Assembly (NCBI RefSeq): GCF_005144475.1
Contig: NZ_SWJZ01000053.1
Location: forward strand, 1 to 47,504
Length of the DNA: 47,504 nucleotides
Reading direction: 5' to 3'
From: Rhodobacter capsulatus
Lineage (GTDB): Bacteria > Pseudomonadota > Alphaproteobacteria > Rhodobacterales > Rhodobacteraceae
Shown here: in pieces, positions 2-15,044 of the stretch
How positions within the stretch are numbered: position 1 is the first letter of the stretch
Layout: every line of letters begins with the position of its first letter
Made by a program: the position numbers and the translations under genes
Notes under the pieces: model-generated
Told to the model about the DNA's origin: nothing
What the model saw: only the letters and a program-made list of their open reading frames with translations
Database searches by the model: none

Positions 2-655
2 GCCGTCACGGTGGCGCGGCCGGGCGGCGGCTTGGCGCCCGCCGCGGCAGAGGCGACGGGGGCGGCGCCGCGCGGCGGCGAGCAGGTCCGCACCCTGACG
101 CTGGAGGAATTTCAGGCGGAACAGTCGATCCTGCTCTGGATCGAGGGGATCAAGGCCTTCCGCGATGATCCAGCGCGGGCGCTTGGCTATGGTCTGCGAC
201 CGCAGTCGGTCGCCGATCTGGTGGCGGAGCTGATCCATGCCGCCCGCCGGACCGGCCTGTCCGGGCGGATGGCAGAGCGGCTTGCAGAGCTGAATTTCGG
301 CCTGACGGTGGAGCGGCTGGCGCCCACCGCCGCGGTGCTGACCGCGGAAATGATCAATGATTTCGTCGCCACGCTGGGCATGTCGGCGCTGCCCGAGACG
401 GCGCGTCCGACGGTGACGCCGCAAGACGGGCCGCCGCGTCCCGCCTTTGCGCGCCGTCGCGGGCAGGATGACGTGGCCGGGCTGCCCGCGACGCCGCGCG
501 CCACCGCCAGCGACATGTGGGAGGATTGGGCCTTCGCGCTGGACGCGGTGATGGATGCGAATGCGCGCGACGGGCTGGGCGGCGACATCGACATCGAACA
601 GAACCTGCGTCTGGGCGCGATCCTGGCGGGCATGCAGCGGGAGGGCGGGCGATGA
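2..655 (+). CDS. C-terminal part of a large protein, possibly SrfC-like (5' end outside window)
   Basis: The reading frame is open to the window edge, so the GTG at position 11 is probably internal and the gene begins upstream. The visible 217 or so residues are mostly helical and contain a segment ending MINDFVATLGM. That segment reminds me of the C-terminal region of putative virulence factor SrfC proteins; this rests on memory of the family and is weak. The last 70 residues are a Pro/Arg-rich linker followed by a short acidic helix. The stop overlaps the next ATG (ATGA at 652-655), so it is translationally coupled to the T6SS-signalling-like operon that follows. Function unknown; confidence is high that it is coding and low for the family. 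Confidence 0.6.
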   Translation, partial: AVTVARPGGGLAPAAAEATGAAPRGGEQVRTLTLEEFQAEQSILLWIEGIKAFRDDPARALGYGLRPQSVADLVAELIHAARRTGLSGRMAERLAELNFGLTVERLAPTAAVLTAEMINDFVATLGMSALPETARPTVTPQDGPPRPAFARRRGQDDVAGLPATPRATASDMWEDWAFALDAVMDANARDGLGGDIDIEQNLRLGAILAGMQREGGR

Positions 656-8198: not shown

Positions 8199-11100
8199 AT
8201 GTCCCTTCTCAGCACGATGACGACGGCCGAAATCGCGGCTTTGTCGACCTCGGTCATGTCCGGTCTGACGACGGGCGACATCGTCGGCGTCAGCCCGGAA
8301 CAGATGCGGGCGCTGGGCGCGGCACAGATCCAGGCGCTGTCGACCGATTTCGTCTCGGGGCTGACGCCGCTGCAGATGCAGATGCTGACCACCGACCAGT
8401 TCGCCGCGCTGCTGTTTCCGCAGATCGCCGTGCTGAACACCGTCGCGCTGCGCGGCCTTTCGACCGAGGCGATCGTCGCACTGACCACCGAACAGGCGGC
8501 GGCGCTGACCTCGGCGCAGGTCGCGGCGCTCTCGACGCTGCAGATCAGCGCCTTTGAAACCGCCGATCTGGCGATGCTGGGACCGGATGCGGTGATCGGC
8601 CTCACCTCGGCGCAGATGCGGGCGCTGGCCACGCGGCAGATGGCGGCGCTGACCGTCGATCAGCTCAATGTGCTGACCGCGACCGCCGCCGCCGCCGTCA
8701 GTTCGGCGCAGTTGGCGGCGCTGGGCACGGCGCAGATCGCCGCGCTGAACGAGCCTGCGGTGGCGGCGCTGGGCACGGCGGCGCTGCGCGGGCTGGCGAC
8801 CGAGGATATCGTGGCGCTGAGCGCCGACGCGGCGGCGGCGCTGACCGCGACGCAGGTCGCCTCGCTGAGCACCGAGCAGCTGGCGGCCTTCGAGACGGTC
8901 GATTTCGCGCATCTGGGCACCGCGGCTCTGGCCGGGCTCGGCTCGGCGCAGATCCGCAGCCTGTCCACCGACAAGCTGGCGGCGCTGGCGACCGAGCAGA
9001 TGGCGGGGCTGTCGAGCGGCCTGATCCAGGCGCTGGGCACCGATCAGATCGGCGCCTTTTCGACGGCGCAGATCCGCGCGCTGGGCAGCCGGGCGGCGCC
9101 CGCGCTGAGTTCGGCGCAGCTGGCGGCGCTGTCCGCCGCGCAGATCGGCGCCTTTTCCGGCGCGACCTTTGCGGCGATCGGCACCGCCGCGCTGAAGGGG
9201 CTTTCGACCGAGGACATGGCGGGGCTCAGCACGCTCGAACTTGCGGCGCTGACCGGAACGCAGATGGCGGCGCTGAGCACTGCGCAGCTGGGGGCGCTGG
9301 GCACGCCGCAGATCGCCGCGCTGTCCGAGGCGGCCGCCGAGGCGCTGAGTTCGGCGCAGATCGACGCCTTGTCCACCGCGCAGATCGCGGCCCTGGGCAG
9401 TGCGGCCTTTGCCGCGCTGAGCACGGCGGCGCTGCGGGCGCTGGCGAGCGAGGATATCGTCGCGCTGACCCAGGCGCAGGCGGCGGCGATGACCGAAACG
9501 CAGGTGGCGGCGCTGAGCACCGAACAGATCGCGGCGCTGGAAGTCGAGGATTTCGCCCGGCTGTCGGGCGAGGCGGCGGCCGGGCTGGGCGCGGCGCAGA
9601 TCGGCGCGCTGAAAGAGGCGCATCTGGCGGCGATGGGCACGGCGATCCTGTCGGGTCTGGGCAGTGCGGCGGTGGCGGGGTTCAGCACGGCGCAGGTCAG
9701 CGCGCTCAGCACGACGCAGCTGGCGGCGATCAGCGCGACCGGCGCGGCGGGGTTCGGCTCGGCGCAGCTGGCGGCGCTGGAGACCGGGCAGATCGCGGCG
9801 CTGGCCACCGCGGCGATCGCGGGGCTGTCGACGGCGGGGCTGCGCGGGCTTTCGGCCGAGGATATCGCGGCGCTGACGACGGCGCAGGCGCGGGCGTTGA
9901 AATCGGCGCAGGTCGCGGCGCTGTCGACGGCGCAGATCGCCGCGTTGGAGACCGAGGACATGGCCGTGCTCGGGTCGGCCGCGCTGTCCGGGCTGGGCTC
10001 GGCGCAGGCGCGGGCGCTGAGCACGGCGCAGATCGCGACGCTGGGCACGGCGCAGATCGCCGGGCTGACCGGCGCGGCCGTTTCGGGGCTGAGCACGACG
10101 CAGATCGGCAAGCTGAGCACCGAACAGATCGGCGCGCTCTCCAGCCTTGCGGTGGCCGGGCTCGGCTCGGCGCAGGCGGCGGCGCTGAGCACGGCGCAGA
10201 TCGCGGCGCTGGCCTCGGCGACGGTGGCGGCGCTGGGCACGGCGGCGATCCGCGGCCTTGGGACCGATGACATCGTGGCGCTGACGACGGCGCAGGCGGC
10301 GCGGCTGGGCTCGGCGCAGGTCAGCGCGCTGACCAGCACGCAGATCGCGGCCTTCGAGGCGGCGGATCTGGCGCAGATCAGCGCGACGGCGCTGGCCGGG
10401 CTCGGTTCGGCCACGATTGCCGGGCTTTCGGGCGCGCAGATCGCGGGGCTTTCGACGCGGCAGATCGCGGGCCTGACGAACACCGCGATCCCGGGGCTGA
10501 GCGCGACGCAGATCGCCAGTTTCGGCACCGCGCAGATCCGCGCGCTGTCGAGCAGTGCGGTGCGCGGGCTGACCTCGGCGCAGATGGCGGCGCTGAGCAC
10601 GACGCAGCTGGCGGCGCTGAGCACCGCCAGCCTGACGGCGTTGAGCGCGAATGCGATCAAGGGCCTCGGCACCGATGATATCGTGGCGCTGACGACGGCG
10701 CAGGCGGCGGCGCTGGGCTCGGCGCAGCTTCTGGCGCTGTCGAGCACGCAGGTGGCGGCGCTGGAAACCGCCGATCTGGTGCGGCTCGGGGTCGAGGCGC
10801 TGGCAGGTTTCGGCGCGACGCAGATCAAGGGGCTGTCGACGCGGCAGATCGCGGCGCTGCTGGCCGATCAGGTCGCCGCCCTGTCGCAGGAGGCGGTGAC
10901 GGCGCTGGGCACGACGCAGCTGGCCAGTCTGGGCACCGATCAGGTCGCGGCGCTGACCAGTGCCGCCGTCGGCGGGCTGGGCTCGGCGCAGATCGCGGCG
11001 CTGAGCACGGCGCAGATCGCGGCGCTGGCCACCGACAGCTTTGCCGCGCTGGGCAGTGCCGCGCTGAAAGGGCTTGCGACCGGTGACATCGTGGCCTTGA

Positions 11101-14100
11101 CCGGCGATCAGATGGCGGCGATGACCTCGCAGCAGGTCGCGGCGCTGAGCACGGCGCAGCTTGCGGCGATCGAGGTCGAGGATCTGACCCGGTTGTCGAC
11201 GACGGCGCTGGCCGGGCTCGGCTCGGCGCAGATCAAATGCCTGAGCGGCGCGCAGATCGGCGTCCTTGGCACCGATCTGATCGCCAGCCTGTCGAGCGCG
11301 GCGATCGCCGGGCTGACCACCGGCCAGATCACCGGCCTGACCGCCGATCAGGTGGCGGCGCTGTCAAGCACCGCCGCCGGGGCGCTGAGTTCGGCGCAGA
11401 TCGCGGCGCTTGACACGGCGCAGATCGCGGCCTTCAGCACGGCGGCGATGGCGGCGCTAGGCACGGCGGCGCTCAAGGGGCTGAGCGGTGCGGCGGTGAC
11501 GGCGCTGAGCGGCGATCAGGTCGGCGCGATGACCTCGACGCAGGTCGCGGCGCTCAGTTCGCAGCAGATCGCGGCGCTGGAAGCGGGCGATCTGGCGCGG
11601 CTGACCACCACCGCGATGCCCGGGCTTGGCTCCGCCCAGGTCAAGGGGCTGAGCCTGACGCAGATGGCGGCGCTTGGCACCGAACAGGTGGCCTGCCTGA
11701 GCAGCACGGCGCTGGGCGCGCTCTCTACGGCGCAGGTTGCGGCACTGGCGGGCGATCAGCTGGCGGCGCTTTCGGCCGGCGGCGGCGCCGGGATGGGCTC
11801 GGCGCAGATCGCCGCGCTCTCCACCGCGCAGATCGCCGCGCTGTCGACGGCGGCGCTTTCGGCGCTGAGCACCTCGGCGCTGGCGGGCCTTGGCACGAAT
11901 GACATCGTCGCGCTGACCGCCGAGGCGGCGGCGGCGCTGGTCTCGCGGCAGATCGCCGCCCTGACGACGACACAGATCGCCGCCTTCCAGACCGAGGATC
12001 TGGCGCAGATCGCCAGCACCGCGATCCGGGGTCTGACCTCGGCGCAGGCACGGGCGCTGTCGATGGCGCAGCTGGCCAGCCTTTCAGCCGATCAGGTCAC
12101 CGCGCTGTCCAGTGCCGCGCTGGCGGGATTTGGCACGGCGCAGGTCGCCAGCTTGTCTCTGGAACAGCTGGACGCGCTCTCGGCCACGGCCGCGCGCGGC
12201 CTGAGCGCGGCGCAGCTGACGGCGCTGAGCACGGCGCAGGTCGCGGCGCTGTCGACGGCGGCGATCGGCGGGCTGGGCACCGCCGCGCTGACCGGGCTGG
12301 GCACCAATGACATCGTCGCGCTGGGGGGCGAGGCGGTGGCGGCGCTGACCTCGTCTCAGATCGCGGCGCTGAGCACGGCGCAGATCCGCGCGATCGAAAC
12401 CGCGGATCTGGGCCAGCTGGGCACGCTGGCGCTGCAGGGGCTCGGTTCGGATCAGATCGTCGGGCTGAGCACGGCGCAGATCGCGGCGCTGAGCCTTGCG
12501 CAGGTGGCACGGCTGAGCACGGCGGCCATCCTCGGGCTGAGCACGGCGCAGCTGGCGGGGTTCACGGTCGAGCAGATCGGCGCGCTGTCGGCCACCGCGG
12601 CCCGGACGCTGACCGCGACGCAGGTGGCGGGCTTCGCCACCGAGCAGATCGCGGCGCTGGGCACGGCGGCGGTGGCGGCCCTGGGCACGACGGCGCTGGC
12701 GGGGCTGGGCACGGCGGACATGGCCGCGCTGAACGATGCGGCGGTCGCGGCCCTGACCTCGGTGCAGCTGGCGGCCCTGAGTTCGACCCAGATCGGCGCG
12801 CTTGAGACCGACGATTTCGGCCGTCTGTCCAGCACGGCGATGGCGGGCTTCGGGGCGGCGCAGGTTGCGGGGCTGGGCACGGCGCAGATCGTCGCGCTGG
12901 GCGCGACGCGGATCGGGCAGCTGGGCACGGCGGCGATCGCGGCCTTTTCGACCGGGCAGATCGCGGCGCTCTCGACCGATCAGGCGCGGGCGATTTCCGG
13001 CGCGGCGGCCCGCGGCTTCAGCGCGGTGCAGGTGGCCGCCTTCACCACCGGCCAGATCGAGGCGCTGAGCACGGCGGCGGTGGCGGCCTTGGGCACGGCC
13101 GCGCTGGCGGGCCTTGCCACCGAGGATATCGCGGCGTTGACCACGGCACAGGCGGCGCGGCTGACCTCGGCGCAGATCGGGGCGCTCTCGACCGCGCAGA
13201 TCGCCGCGCTGGAGACCGAAGATCTGGCGCAGATCGCCCCCTCGTCGCTGCAGGCGCTGGGGTCGGCGCAGCTTGCCGCGCTCTCGACGCGGCAGGTGGC
13301 GGCGCTGTCGACCGGGGCGATCGGCGCGCTGAGCACGGCCGCGCTGAAGGGGCTGGGCACGAATGACATCGTCGCCCTGACCACGGCGCAGGCGGCACGG
13401 CTGAGTGCGGCGCAGATCGCGGCGCTCGGCACGGCCCAGATTGCGGCGCTGGAAACCGCGGATATCGCACAGCTTTCGGTCTCGGCCATGGCGGGGTTCG
13501 GGACGGCGCAGATGGCCAGCCTGAGCACGGCGCAGATCCGCGCCCTCGGCACGGCGCAGATCGCCCGGCTGACCAGCGCGGCCATCGCCGGACTGACGAC
13601 GACGCAGGTCGCGGCGCTGACCACGGCGCAGGTCGCGGCGCTGTCGAGCGCGGCGGTCACCGCGCTGGGCTCGGCGCAGCTGGCGGCTTTCGGTACGGCG
13701 CAGATCGCCGCGCTGGGCAGCGCGGTCATCCCGGCGCTGACCACGGCGGCGCTGCGCGGGATGGAAACCGCCGATGTCGCGGCCCTGACCGGGGCGCAGG
13801 TCGCGCGGCTCGGCTCGGCGCAGATCCGGGCGCTCTCGGCGGCGCAGATCGCCGCCATCGACAGCGCGGATGTGGCGCAACTGGCCCCGGCGGCGATCTC
13901 CGGGATCGGCGCGGTGCAGATGGCGGCCTTTGCCAGCGGGCAGATCGCCGCGCTGACCGAGATGCAGGTGGCGCGGCTCGGATCGGCGGCGATCGCGGGG
14001 CTGAGCGCCGCGCAGATCGCCGCGATGACGACCGCGCAGATCCGCGCCCTTGCGGCGGCGGCGGCCCCCGCTTTCGGCTCGGCGCAACTGGCGGCCTTCG

Positions 14101-15044
14101 AGACCGAACAGATCGCGGCGCTGAGTTCCGGCACGGTGGCGGCGCTGGGCACCGCGGCCCTGCGCGGCCTTTCGACGGCGCAGATCGCCGCCCTGACCAC
14201 GGCGCAGGCGCCGGTTCTGAGTTCGGCGCAGATCGCCGCGCTGAGTGCCGCGCAGATCGCCGGTTTCGAGACCGAAGATCTGGCGCGGCTCTCGGCGACG
14301 GCCTTTGGCGGCCTTGGTTCGGCGCAGCTCGCCAGCCTTGACACCGCACAGATCGCCGCGATCAGCGCGGCGCAGATCGCCCGGCTTTCCGCCACCGCGA
14401 TCACCGGGCTGACCACGGCGCAGGCCGCGGCGCTCTCGACCGATCAGGTGCGCGGCATCTCCTCCACCGCGATCCGCGCGCTCAGCGCGACGCAGATCGC
14501 CGCGCTGTCGACCGATCAGGTGGCTTCGATCGGCACTTCGGCGCTGGCGGCACTTTCGACCGCGGCCCTGGGCGGGCTTGGCACCGAGGATGTGCGGGCG
14601 CTGACAACCGCGCAGGCCGCAAGCCTGACGCTGAGCCAGATGGCGGCGCTGACCACGGCGCAGGTGCGGGCGCTGGAAGCGCAGGATCTTGCCCGGATCA
14701 GCGCCGCGGCGATCGTCGGCCTTGGCACGGCGCAGATCGGCAGCCTGGCCAGCGCGCAGGCGGCGGCGCTGATGACCGCGCAGGTCGCCAGCCTGACCAC
14801 GGCGCAGATCCACGCGCTGAGCACCGCCGCCGTCGCGGCGCTGAGCACGGCGGCGATCCGCGCCCTGCGCTCGACACAGATGGGGGGCTGGACCACGGCG
14901 CAGATCGCGGCCTTCACGCTCGATCAGATCACCGCGCTGGAAACCGCCGACATCCGCGCCCTGACCGGAACGCAGGTGGCCGCCTTCACCGAGACGCAGC
15001 GCGACGCGATGACGGCGGCACAGATCGCGGCGCTGTCGCTTTAA
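8199..15044 (+). CDS. Giant protein made of 284 octapeptide repeats in a 17-octad superrepeat
   Basis: 2281 residues from ATG 8199, which is preceded by a GGTGAG-like ribosome site; an in-frame GTG at 8187 is the alternative start. After seven residues the whole protein is octapeptides of consensus STAQIAAL, 284 in unbroken register, ending with Ser-Leu. Ser/Thr at positions 1-2 and Gln/Asp at 4 look like helix N-caps, with Ile/Val/Leu at 5 and Leu at 8 as a hydrophobic face, so a solenoid of very short helices is plausible. A landmark octad (GTDDIVAL type) recurs every 408 bp in 13 of 17 intervals; the other four intervals are 240, 240, 288 and 336 bp, all multiples of 24. No signal peptide, transmembrane helix, lipobox or secretion domain is visible. 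Only two cysteines and one tryptophan were noticed. The function is unknown; adhesin, filament, scaffold or secreted effector are possibilities. Confidence 0.9.
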   Translation: MSLLSTMTTAEIAALSTSVMSGLTTGDIVGVSPEQMRALGAAQIQALSTDFVSGLTPLQMQMLTTDQFAALLFPQIAVLNTVALRGLSTEAIVALTTEQAAALTSAQVAALSTLQISAFETADLAMLGPDAVIGLTSAQMRALATRQMAALTVDQLNVLTATAAAAVSSAQLAALGTAQIAALNEPAVAALGTAALRGLATEDIVALSADAAAALTATQVASLSTEQLAAFETVDFAHLGTAALAGLGSAQIRSLSTDKLAALATEQMAGLSSGLIQALGTDQIGAFSTAQIRALGSRAAPALSSAQLAALSAAQIGAFSGATFAAIGTAALKGLSTEDMAGLSTLELAALTGTQMAALSTAQLGALGTPQIAALSEAAAEALSSAQIDALSTAQIAALGSAAFAALSTAALRALASEDIVALTQAQAAAMTETQVAALSTEQIAALEVEDFARLSGEAAAGLGAAQIGALKEAHLAAMGTAILSGLGSAAVAGFSTAQVSALSTTQLAAISATGAAGFGSAQLAALETGQIAALATAAIAGLSTAGLRGLSAEDIAALTTAQARALKSAQVAALSTAQIAALETEDMAVLGSAALSGLGSAQARALSTAQIATLGTAQIAGLTGAAVSGLSTTQIGKLSTEQIGALSSLAVAGLGSAQAAALSTAQIAALASATVAALGTAAIRGLGTDDIVALTTAQAARLGSAQVSALTSTQIAAFEAADLAQISATALAGLGSATIAGLSGAQIAGLSTRQIAGLTNTAIPGLSATQIASFGTAQIRALSSSAVRGLTSAQMAALSTTQLAALSTASLTALSANAIKGLGTDDIVALTTAQAAALGSAQLLALSSTQVAALETADLVRLGVEALAGFGATQIKGLSTRQIAALLADQVAALSQEAVTALGTTQLASLGTDQVAALTSAAVGGLGSAQIAALSTAQIAALATDSFAALGSAALKGLATGDIVALTGDQMAAMTSQQVAALSTAQLAAIEVEDLTRLSTTALAGLGSAQIKCLSGAQIGVLGTDLIASLSSAAIAGLTTGQITGLTADQVAALSSTAAGALSSAQIAALDTAQIAAFSTAAMAALGTAALKGLSGAAVTALSGDQVGAMTSTQVAALSSQQIAALEAGDLARLTTTAMPGLGSAQVKGLSLTQMAALGTEQVACLSSTALGALSTAQVAALAGDQLAALSAGGGAGMGSAQIAALSTAQIAALSTAALSALSTSALAGLGTNDIVALTAEAAAALVSRQIAALTTTQIAAFQTEDLAQIASTAIRGLTSAQARALSMAQLASLSADQVTALSSAALAGFGTAQVASLSLEQLDALSATAARGLSAAQLTALSTAQVAALSTAAIGGLGTAALTGLGTNDIVALGGEAVAALTSSQIAALSTAQIRAIETADLGQLGTLALQGLGSDQIVGLSTAQIAALSLAQVARLSTAAILGLSTAQLAGFTVEQIGALSATAARTLTATQVAGFATEQIAALGTAAVAALGTTALAGLGTADMAALNDAAVAALTSVQLAALSSTQIGALETDDFGRLSSTAMAGFGAAQVAGLGTAQIVALGATRIGQLGTAAIAAFSTGQIAALSTDQARAISGAAARGFSAVQVAAFTTGQIEALSTAAVAALGTAALAGLATEDIAALTTAQAARLTSAQIGALSTAQIAALETEDLAQIAPSSLQALGSAQLAALSTRQVAALSTGAIGALSTAALKGLGTNDIVALTTAQAARLSAAQIAALGTAQIAALETADIAQLSVSAMAGFGTAQMASLSTAQIRALGTAQIARLTSAAIAGLTTTQVAALTTAQVAALSSAAVTALGSAQLAAFGTAQIAALGSAVIPALTTAALRGMETADVAALTGAQVARLGSAQIRALSAAQIAAIDSADVAQLAPAAISGIGAVQMAAFASGQIAALTEMQVARLGSAAIAGLSAAQIAAMTTAQIRALAAAAAPAFGSAQLAAFETEQIAALSSGTVAALGTAALRGLSTAQIAALTTAQAPVLSSAQIAALSAAQIAGFETEDLARLSATAFGGLGSAQLASLDTAQIAAISAAQIARLSATAITGLTTAQAAALSTDQVRGISSTAIRALSATQIAALSTDQVASIGTSALAALSTAALGGLGTEDVRALTTAQAASLTLSQMAALTTAQVRALEAQDLARISAAAIVGLGTAQIGSLASAQAAALMTAQVASLTTAQIHALSTAAVAALSTAAIRALRSTQMGGWTTAQIAAFTLDQITALETADIRALTGTQVAAFTETQRDAMTAAQIAALSL
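8451..14858 (+). repeat. 408-bp (17 x 24 bp) tandem superrepeat within the giant gene
   Basis: Landmark octads begin at 8451, 8787, 9195, 9435, 9843, 10251, 10659, 11067, 11475, 11883, 12291, 12699, 13107, 13347, 13755, 14163, 14571 and 14859, measured at the codon before the Gly-Leu that precedes each octad. Thirteen intervals are exactly 408 bp. Within a unit, residue 4 of successive octads follows the order D Q Q Q D A Q Q Q A Q Q A Q Q A A. Shortened units lack whole octads only, so both the reading frame and the 8-residue phase survive. Confidence 0.93.

What the first reader, a model, noticed from the sequence alone, without database searches (positions are those of the whole stretch)
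8199..15044. A 2281-residue protein made of 284 octapeptides with a 408-bp second-order repeat
The octad STAQIAAL-type repeat runs without a single break of register from residue 8 to the end. Superimposed on it is a 17-octad unit (136 residues, 408 bp), repeated exactly in 13 of 17 intervals. Residue 4 of the octads follows a fixed order within each unit: D Q Q Q D A Q Q Q A Q Q A Q Q A A. A two-level repeat of this precision implies a long solenoid with a defined superhelical repeat, with acidic and alanine octads forming stripes on one face. I know of hierarchical repeats in ice-nucleation proteins, but not this motif or this 8/136 scheme.
Basis: partly seen in the sequence, partly recalled or inferred. 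Interest (0 to 1): 0.88.

Follow-up and report, generated by a model that had tools for sequence, protein, structure and literature searches.

The report
Giant octapeptide rod protein, probably secreted

Summary
In detail: 2281 aa, 284 octads in one register, best self-match at 136 aa/408 bp, position-4 order as stated. The motif is known: Pfam PF20080, for which I found no function. New is the meaning of 136. In 87 such arrays (10,966 octads) sequence features recur every 3.40 octads; 71 of 87 beat shuffles. The best second-order lag is within an eighth of a turn of a whole number of 3.4-octad turns in 52 of 53 long arrays; 11 of 39 lags qualify. AlphaFold2 predicts about one short helix per octad. 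I read an alpha-solenoid with 3.4 octads per turn; 17 octads are five turns. Acidic and alanine octads lie on opposite faces. A second array in this genome lies beside a GT41 glycosyltransferase and a type I exporter; 26 of 50 array stretches hold GT41, 17 also the exporter (some chosen knowing GT41 places). In Rhodobacter the same 5 of 18 genomes hold arrays and GT41. The window gene lacks such neighbours but ends like most exporter-linked arrays. Export and O-glycosylation are inferred.

The parts
8199..15044 (+). ALTTAQ (PF20080) octad-repeat protein, 2281 aa, 284 octads; no signal-peptide-like N-terminus by inspection
   Evidence: dN/dS about 0.24 against R. capsulatus DSM 1710 and 0.27 against R. 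viridis (ratios of the values)
8199..8219 (+). N-terminal cap MSLLSTM, leading straight into the first octad; many relatives begin in a similar way
9444..13115 (+). nine consecutive 17-octad (408-bp) units, octads 51-203
13116..13355 (+). short unit of 10 octads (about three turns)
10692..11099 (+). 17-octad unit that the orthologue in L053 (G010) lacks; placement within the repeat is ambiguous
   Evidence: 104 octads match, 17 missing, 164 match
10668..11891 (+). 408-aa stretch folded by AlphaFold2: 50 helices of four or more residues for 51 octads, mean pLDDT 93.3
15009..15041 (+). C-terminus MTAAQIAALSL, ending two residues after octad position 8, as in 8 of 11 readable exporter-linked array stretches; candidate export signal

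Best explanation
The gene encodes a giant alpha-solenoid rod. Each octad [S/T-S/T-x-Q/A/D-I-x-x-L] makes one short helix capped by Ser/Thr, with residues 5 and 8 in the core. About 3.40 octads (27.2 residues) make one turn, so 284 octads give about 84 turns. Because 17/5 = 3.400, a 17-octad unit closes on the superhelix after five turns; gains or losses of that size keep every face in phase, which is why the second-order repeat is 136 residues. One face carries Thr/Gln/Asp/Glu, the opposite face Ala/Gly/Ser. Inferred function: like the cassette-borne paralogue in the same genome, the rod is exported without a signal peptide by a type I secretion system (ABC + HlyD), O-glycosylated on Ser/Thr by the GT41 enzyme encoded beside the exporter, and serves as a surface or extracellular fibre or adhesin. 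Shown: repeat, sequence period, conservation, gene association. Inferred: the winding in three dimensions, handedness, core and cap roles of residues, export, glycosylation, adhesion.
For: Period: window peak 3.396 octads, 0 of 200 shuffles. Over 87 arrays/10,966 octads the pooled spectrum has, beside a peak at 2.0, one at 3.398 and its aliased harmonics 2.44, 8.7 and 5.6; 71 of 87 arrays significant. Best second-order lag near a whole number of turns in 52 of 53 arrays of at least 80 octads, where 11 of 39 lags would qualify. A 17-octad gap separates L053 from the window; L051 and L055 match 285 of 285 octads. AF2: about one helix per octad, pLDDT 93.3, pTM 0.78; Foldseek's six PDB matches with E <= 0.001 are all mesothelin, described as a compact right-handed solenoid of short helices. 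Association: GT41 in 26 of 50 array stretches, T1SS ABC + HlyD in 17 of 50, every one of the 17 also with GT41; Pfam/NCBIfam confirm GT41, HlyD_3, ABC_membrane and TIGR01842 in sampled ones. In Rhodobacter arrays and GT41 occur in the same 5 of 18 genomes, the best GT41 hit of each beside an array. The window array's C-terminal ending matches 8 of 11 readable exporter-linked stretches.
Against: The window contig has no match to the cassette GT41, HlyD or methyltransferase, and only ATPase-domain matches of other ABC transporters; its orthologues L051, L053 and L055 likewise lack the cassette. 24 of 50 stretches lack GT41, and several of those that have it were chosen with GT41 positions known. 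Three exporter-linked arrays (L092, L104, L116) end in a different extra domain; six others are cut before the end. TM-scores of the six mesothelin matches are 0.18-0.21 by query and 0.23-0.30 by target. 16 of 87 arrays show no significant 3.4 signal; the second frame of L076 (45 octads) repeats at 8/16/24 octads with 0.87-0.90 identity and shows none. S+T content does not differ between GT41-linked and other arrays (p = 0.94), although T alone is slightly higher (p = 0.006).
Confidence: 0.55

Rival explanations
1. The 136-residue period is only a record of how the array grew: a 17-octad block was amplified by unequal crossing-over, and the 3.4 period is inherited from the first block, with no structural meaning.
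For: A block-size gap between orthologues; some arrays are strongly homogenised (L050 lag-136 identity 0.81; L128 lag 24, 0.912). The lag test and the Fourier test use the same data and are not independent.
Against: Arrays whose best lags differ (10, 17, 24, 27, 34) share the same 3.4 period. 51-octad stretches of the window are about half identical to each other (52-53%) yet 62-96% identical to the same place in R. capsulatus DSM 1710 and R. viridis, so the pattern has been held without recent homogenisation; dN/dS about 0.24-0.27.
Confidence: 0.2
2. It is a cytoplasmic scaffold or ruler rather than an exported fibre; the GT41/T1SS cassette serves only the short paralogue.
For: No signal peptide by inspection, no cassette genes on the window contig, conserved neighbours of another kind (VWA, ABC, FtsX-like, FGE-sulfatase and others).
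Against: All four Rhodobacter genomes of the draw with the long array also carry a cassette; the C-terminus ends like most readable exporter-linked arrays; T1SS substrates as a rule lack N-terminal signal peptides (established knowledge).
Confidence: 0.25
3. An ice-nucleation or heme-utilisation exoprotein, as some relatives are annotated.
For: Names 'ICE nucleation protein', 'heme utilization protein' and 'large exoprotein involved in heme utilization or adhesion' on Cereibacter or Pseudomonas records.
Against: Predicted helical, no strands in the model; Tyr 0.0% and His 0.1% when rounded; no ice-nucleation or haemagglutinin family among the six Pfam families listed up to E = 1. The names are most likely inherited from repeat similarity.
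Confidence: 0.02

Closest known systems
Pfam PF20080 ALTTAQ repeat proteins
   Same: Same octad motif; 1331 bits, 85 stretches in P0001.
   Different: Pfam's model is 38 positions long (4.75 octads), so it cannot show the 3.4-octad turn or the 17-octad unit.
HeliScrew4 (PDB 9zem)
   Same: Octad series of LTPEQIAA type, E = 2.9e-14 with one window unit; the name suggests a helical screw.
   Different: 120 aa; origin unknown to me (perhaps designed); no paper found; its structure could not be read here and it is not among the 50 Foldseek rows shown.
Mesothelin (PDB 8cx3)
   Same: Right-handed solenoid of short helices in layers (PMC10035497, abstract and passages seen); all six Foldseek PDB hits with E <= 0.001.
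   Different: 24 helices in nine layers, about 2.7 per layer; irregular; sequence identity 12-16%; TM 0.18-0.21 by query.
RTX-type giant proteins exported by type I secretion
   Same: Giant repeat protein without signal peptide; relatives linked to ABC + HlyD exporters.
   Different: No RTX calcium-repeat family among the Pfam hits of the window protein; repeat is alpha, not beta; partner glycosyltransferase is GT41.

Membership tests
PF20080 ALTTAQ repeat | Profile match above the curated cut-off | tested here: met
   1331.4 bits against 26.4; 85 stretches. LRR_EndoS (66.6 bits, cut-off 27.9) and HTH_25 (37.9, cut-off 24.6) also pass as whole-protein sums but with no single stretch passing, so I take them for cross-hits.
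Type I secretion substrate | No cleaved N-terminal signal peptide | tested here: met
   N-terminus MSLLSTMTTAEIAAL is already repeat; by inspection, no predictor run
Type I secretion substrate | C-terminal export signal | tested here: inconclusive
   Ends two residues after octad position 8 like 8 of 11 readable exporter-linked stretches; not a functional test
Type I secretion substrate | Exporter genes adjacent (common, not obligatory) | tested here: not met
   No cassette exporter on the window contig; present beside the paralogue in the same genome
ARM/HEAT/mesothelin-like solenoids | Turn of two or three helices; ARM repeats of about 30-40 residues (as given in PMC10035497) | tested here: not met
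   Inferred 3.4 one-helix octads, 27.2 aa per turn; no ARM, HEAT or mesothelin family in the Pfam list up to E = 1
Ice-nucleation protein | Beta-solenoid octapeptide/16-mer with TxT and Tyr (recalled definition) | tested here: not met
   Helical model without strands; Tyr rounds to 0.0%
GT41 glycoprotein | O-linked sugar on Ser/Thr | not testable with these tools
   Only gene association

The most novel reading that the evidence does not exclude
ALTTAQ proteins form a distinct class of secreted glyco-rods: a 3.4-octad alpha-solenoid exported by type I secretion and sugar-coated by a GT41 enzyme, whose arrays mostly grow or shrink in blocks that make a near-whole number of superhelical turns (10, 17, 24, 27, 34 octads), so that the genome sequence records the pitch of the fibre.
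Probability: 0.35. Interest if true: 0.78.

Novelty: new variant of a known kind. Interest (0 to 1): 0.62.

Why it matters
A Pfam repeat family for which I found no function gains a structural rule that can be tested with one set of coordinates (3.40 octads per turn) and a functional hypothesis (T1SS-exported, GT41-glycosylated rod). A non-integer helical repeat that selects the size of duplication blocks would be a clean example of geometry constraining genome change, useful for repeat-protein design. It would also give bacterial O-GlcNAc-transferase-like enzymes a candidate natural substrate.

Tried and rejected
Alignment-based scans for relatives did not run because no stretch of A1 was conserved enough; a single-protein scan gave R. 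capsulatus DSM 1710, R. viridis and one distant Chloroflexi MAG contig. Phage records held no match at E 1e-5; E. coli genomes held none by megablast. BFVD's best match was an uncharacterised phage protein, E 1.5e-6, TM 0.22 by query; not followed. phmmer also matched LRR proteins in the PDB (best 7wrq, E 3.4e-8), which I take for repeat and composition similarity. A 3.4 period in AF2 helix lengths was looked for and not found. No difference in S+T content between GT41-linked and other arrays. Neither library gave an export-domain match over its cut-off in the extra C-terminal parts of the Pseudomonas and G467 arrays. The Rhizobium leguminosarum secretome paper (PMC2275737, 12 passages by find) showed no ALTTAQ protein in those passages. 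The second AF2 job, on the C-terminus, had three rows and gave pLDDT 76.3 with stretches below 50 between residues 150 and 178; I draw nothing from it.

Statistics not relied on: the figure for 22 genomes (15 observed, 1.13 expected) is biased, since stretches were chosen after GT41 positions were known. For the best array place per genome I examined 13 of the 27 other array-bearing genomes (the rest were not fetched): 6 of 13 hold GT41, about 0.6 expected at most. For G141, G169, G131 and G173 the side of the array was chosen with the GT41 position known, so the expectation should be roughly doubled. Firmer are the named plasmids, chosen by array only (21 of 56 records; 11 with GT41), and the genus test. 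Within the genus the five genomes are related, so 1 in 8568 is not a true probability. The 87 arrays are not all independent (orthologues, split arrays), and the 50 stretches include L103 and L104, which flank one array, and a few pairs from one genome.

Full report
What is there. The ORF at 8199-15044 (+) of a 47,504-base contig encodes 2281 aa. It is 284 full octads in one register, with best self-identity at 136 aa and 408 bp. Orthologues L051 and L055 match octad for octad, 285 of 285; L053 lacks exactly 17 octads. Nine of ten neighbouring genes tested are found around the array in L053; the tenth, the SrfC end, lies beyond that stretch. The coding sequence is under purifying selection: dN 0.042 and dS 0.174 against DSM 1710, dN 0.196 and dS 0.718 against R. 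viridis.

Known family. The motif belongs to Pfam PF20080, ALTTAQ repeat. I found no paper naming it: searches for ALTTAQ, HeliScrew and PF20080 gave nothing, and seven wider searches listed nothing that I recognised as describing it from titles and abstract starts. The library holds open-licence PubMed Central papers only. The closest sequence in the PDB is 9zem, HeliScrew4. Plasmid relatives number 56 records, 41 of them Rhizobium, Shinella or Cereibacter; some are annotated 'heme utilization protein' or 'ICE nucleation protein'.

The 3.4-octad turn. Lags preferred by many arrays looked like multiples of 3.4. A Fourier test on octads, with octad shuffles as control, gave 3.396 for the window and a peak near 3.4 among the listed peaks of most other arrays; a band test on 31 arrays found 25 with at most 2 of 200 shuffles as strong. 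With more loci, 87 arrays and 10,966 octads, 71 of 87 were significant at 1 of 30 shuffles or better, and the strongest period longer than 2.13 octads fell in 3.3-3.5 in 52 of 87. The pooled spectrum peaks at 2.0 (carried mainly, as I read, by the unnamed family f83) and at 3.398, with peaks at 2.44, 8.7 and 5.6, which are harmonics 2, 3 and 4 of 3.4 folded back by sampling at whole octads; smaller peaks at 4.81, 2.11 and 2.05 are also listed. In the 53 arrays of at least 80 octads, the best lag is 17 in 17, 10 in 13, 24 in 9, 27 in 5, 34 in 4, 14 in 2, and 20, 37 and 6 in one each. In turns of 3.4 these are 5.0, 2.94, 7.06, 7.94, 10.0, 4.12, 5.88, 10.88 and, the one misfit, 1.76. Of the 39 lags from 2 to 40, 11 lie within an eighth of a turn of a whole turn. 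Mean lag strength falls with distance from a whole turn (Spearman -0.74; lags and arrays are not independent). Within the window, short units of 10 and 14 octads are about three and four turns. Against: 16 of 87 arrays are not significant, and the second frame of L076 (45 octads, lags 8/16/24) breaks the rule.

Faces. On a 3.4 wheel the D octads average 244 degrees and the A octads 50 degrees; Q octads are spread. Acidic residues peak at 1.29 per octad in one eighth of the wheel, and A4, G7 and S2 are enriched roughly opposite. Thr and Ser at position 2 are roughly in antiphase in the window, L050, L072 and L077.

Structure. AlphaFold2 on 408 aa with 12 rows (window, R. capsulatus, R. viridis only) gave pLDDT 93.3 and 50 helices of four or more residues for 51 octads. 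Foldseek's six PDB matches with E <= 0.001 are all mesothelin, but with TM 0.18-0.21 by query. The mesothelin paper (PMC10035497, abstract and passages) describes a right-handed solenoid of 24 short helices in nine layers. Handedness of the present protein is therefore inferred.

Gene association. The own genome's second array (C85, 963-aa frame, L057) has a divergent TPR-GT41 glycosyltransferase on one side and methyltransferase, HlyD and ABC exporter on the other. tblastn with these and the Pseudomonas L092 counterparts over 50 stretches fetched around PF20080 places (33, not counting L088 and L089, which repeat L055 and L051; 17) found GT41 in 26 and ABC + HlyD in 17, every one of the 17 also with GT41. 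Of the 20 stretches, several were chosen with GT41 positions already known. By source: named plasmids, chosen by array alone (21 of 56 records), GT41 11 of 21 and exporter 6 of 21; Rhodobacter stretches, GT41 5 of 8 and exporter 4 of 8, with none at the three long orthologues; the window contig has neither (its only matches are to ATPase domains of other ABC transporters). Best array place per genome in the phylum draw: GT41 in 6 of 13 examined (of 27 other genomes), about 0.6 expected at most, or about twice that if the chosen side is allowed for. In the genus draw of 18, PF20080, the A3 profile and PF13844 all ring in the same five genomes, the best GT41 hit of each lying beside an array. 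In the phylum draw PF13844 rings in 133 of 398 genomes and PF20080 in 28 of 398; by my comparison of the two lists, 19 of those 28 also have GT41, 16 of them in the one family f83, so GT41 is commoner than the arrays and must have other roles. The Pseudomonas L116 exporter is TIGR01842 (759.8 bits, cut-off 510); the L057 one is nearest TIGR01846 but below its cut-off (556 against 726).

Ends. Many readable N-termini start M-T/S-x-I/L-..-S-L/M-S/T and run straight into the repeat, with no signal peptide to the eye. The window protein ends two residues after octad position 8. Of 11 exporter-linked stretches with a readable C-terminus, 8 end the same way (L052, L054, L056, L057, L091, L123, L128, L131) and 3 do not (L092, L104, L116, which carry an extra domain); L095-L100 are cut. 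L050, with GT41 but no exporter in its stretch, also ends so; the Rhizobium-type ends L118, L122 and L125 stop seven residues after it (I chose 13 ends from those printed).

Reading. A rod with 3.4 one-helix octads per turn explains the 8-residue register, the 136-residue unit, the other block sizes and the shared face pattern by one number. Export by type I secretion and O-glycosylation by GT41 are the simplest reading of the cassette, extended to the window protein by its ending and by the presence of a cassette in all four genomes of the genus draw that hold the long array; no experiment supports them yet.

Noticed in passing
window 11-655 and G000:C136:17-1999: The contig starts inside a SrfC (PF10139, putative virulence factor) gene; the matching N-terminal part is on contig C136. 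It is followed on the same strand by VWA, ABC, FtsX-like and FGE-sulfatase genes that look like one operon.
   Followed up: partly
L076/L112 (G197:C78): Three consecutive ALTTAQ frames; the one of 371 aa in L076 repeats at 8/16/24 octads with 0.87-0.90 identity and shows no 3.4 signal.
   Followed up: partly
L060-L077 and L105-L114, chiefly unnamed family f83: A strong second period of 2.0 octads (16 aa) beside 3.4 in many of these arrays; open frames up to 6436 aa.
   Followed up: no
L123 11350-16470: The Pseudoroseomonas cervicalis array is spread over several frames on the same strand, as after frameshifts or sequencing errors.
   Followed up: no
L125, L093: Arrays on Pseudorhizobium flavum and Rhodovastum plasmids lie near flagellin/hook or flagellar export genes as well as GT41.
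   Followed up: no
L050 12663-13835, L094 19920-21008, L125 21567-22658: UDP-galactopyranose mutase near arrays with GT41 but without the exporter in the stretch, hinting at a galactofuranose-containing glycan.
   Followed up: no
L131 16411-19500 (Cereibacter sphaeroides plasmid pA): A Calx-beta/RTX calcium-repeat protein lies next to the array on the other side, perhaps a second substrate of the same exporter.
   Followed up: no
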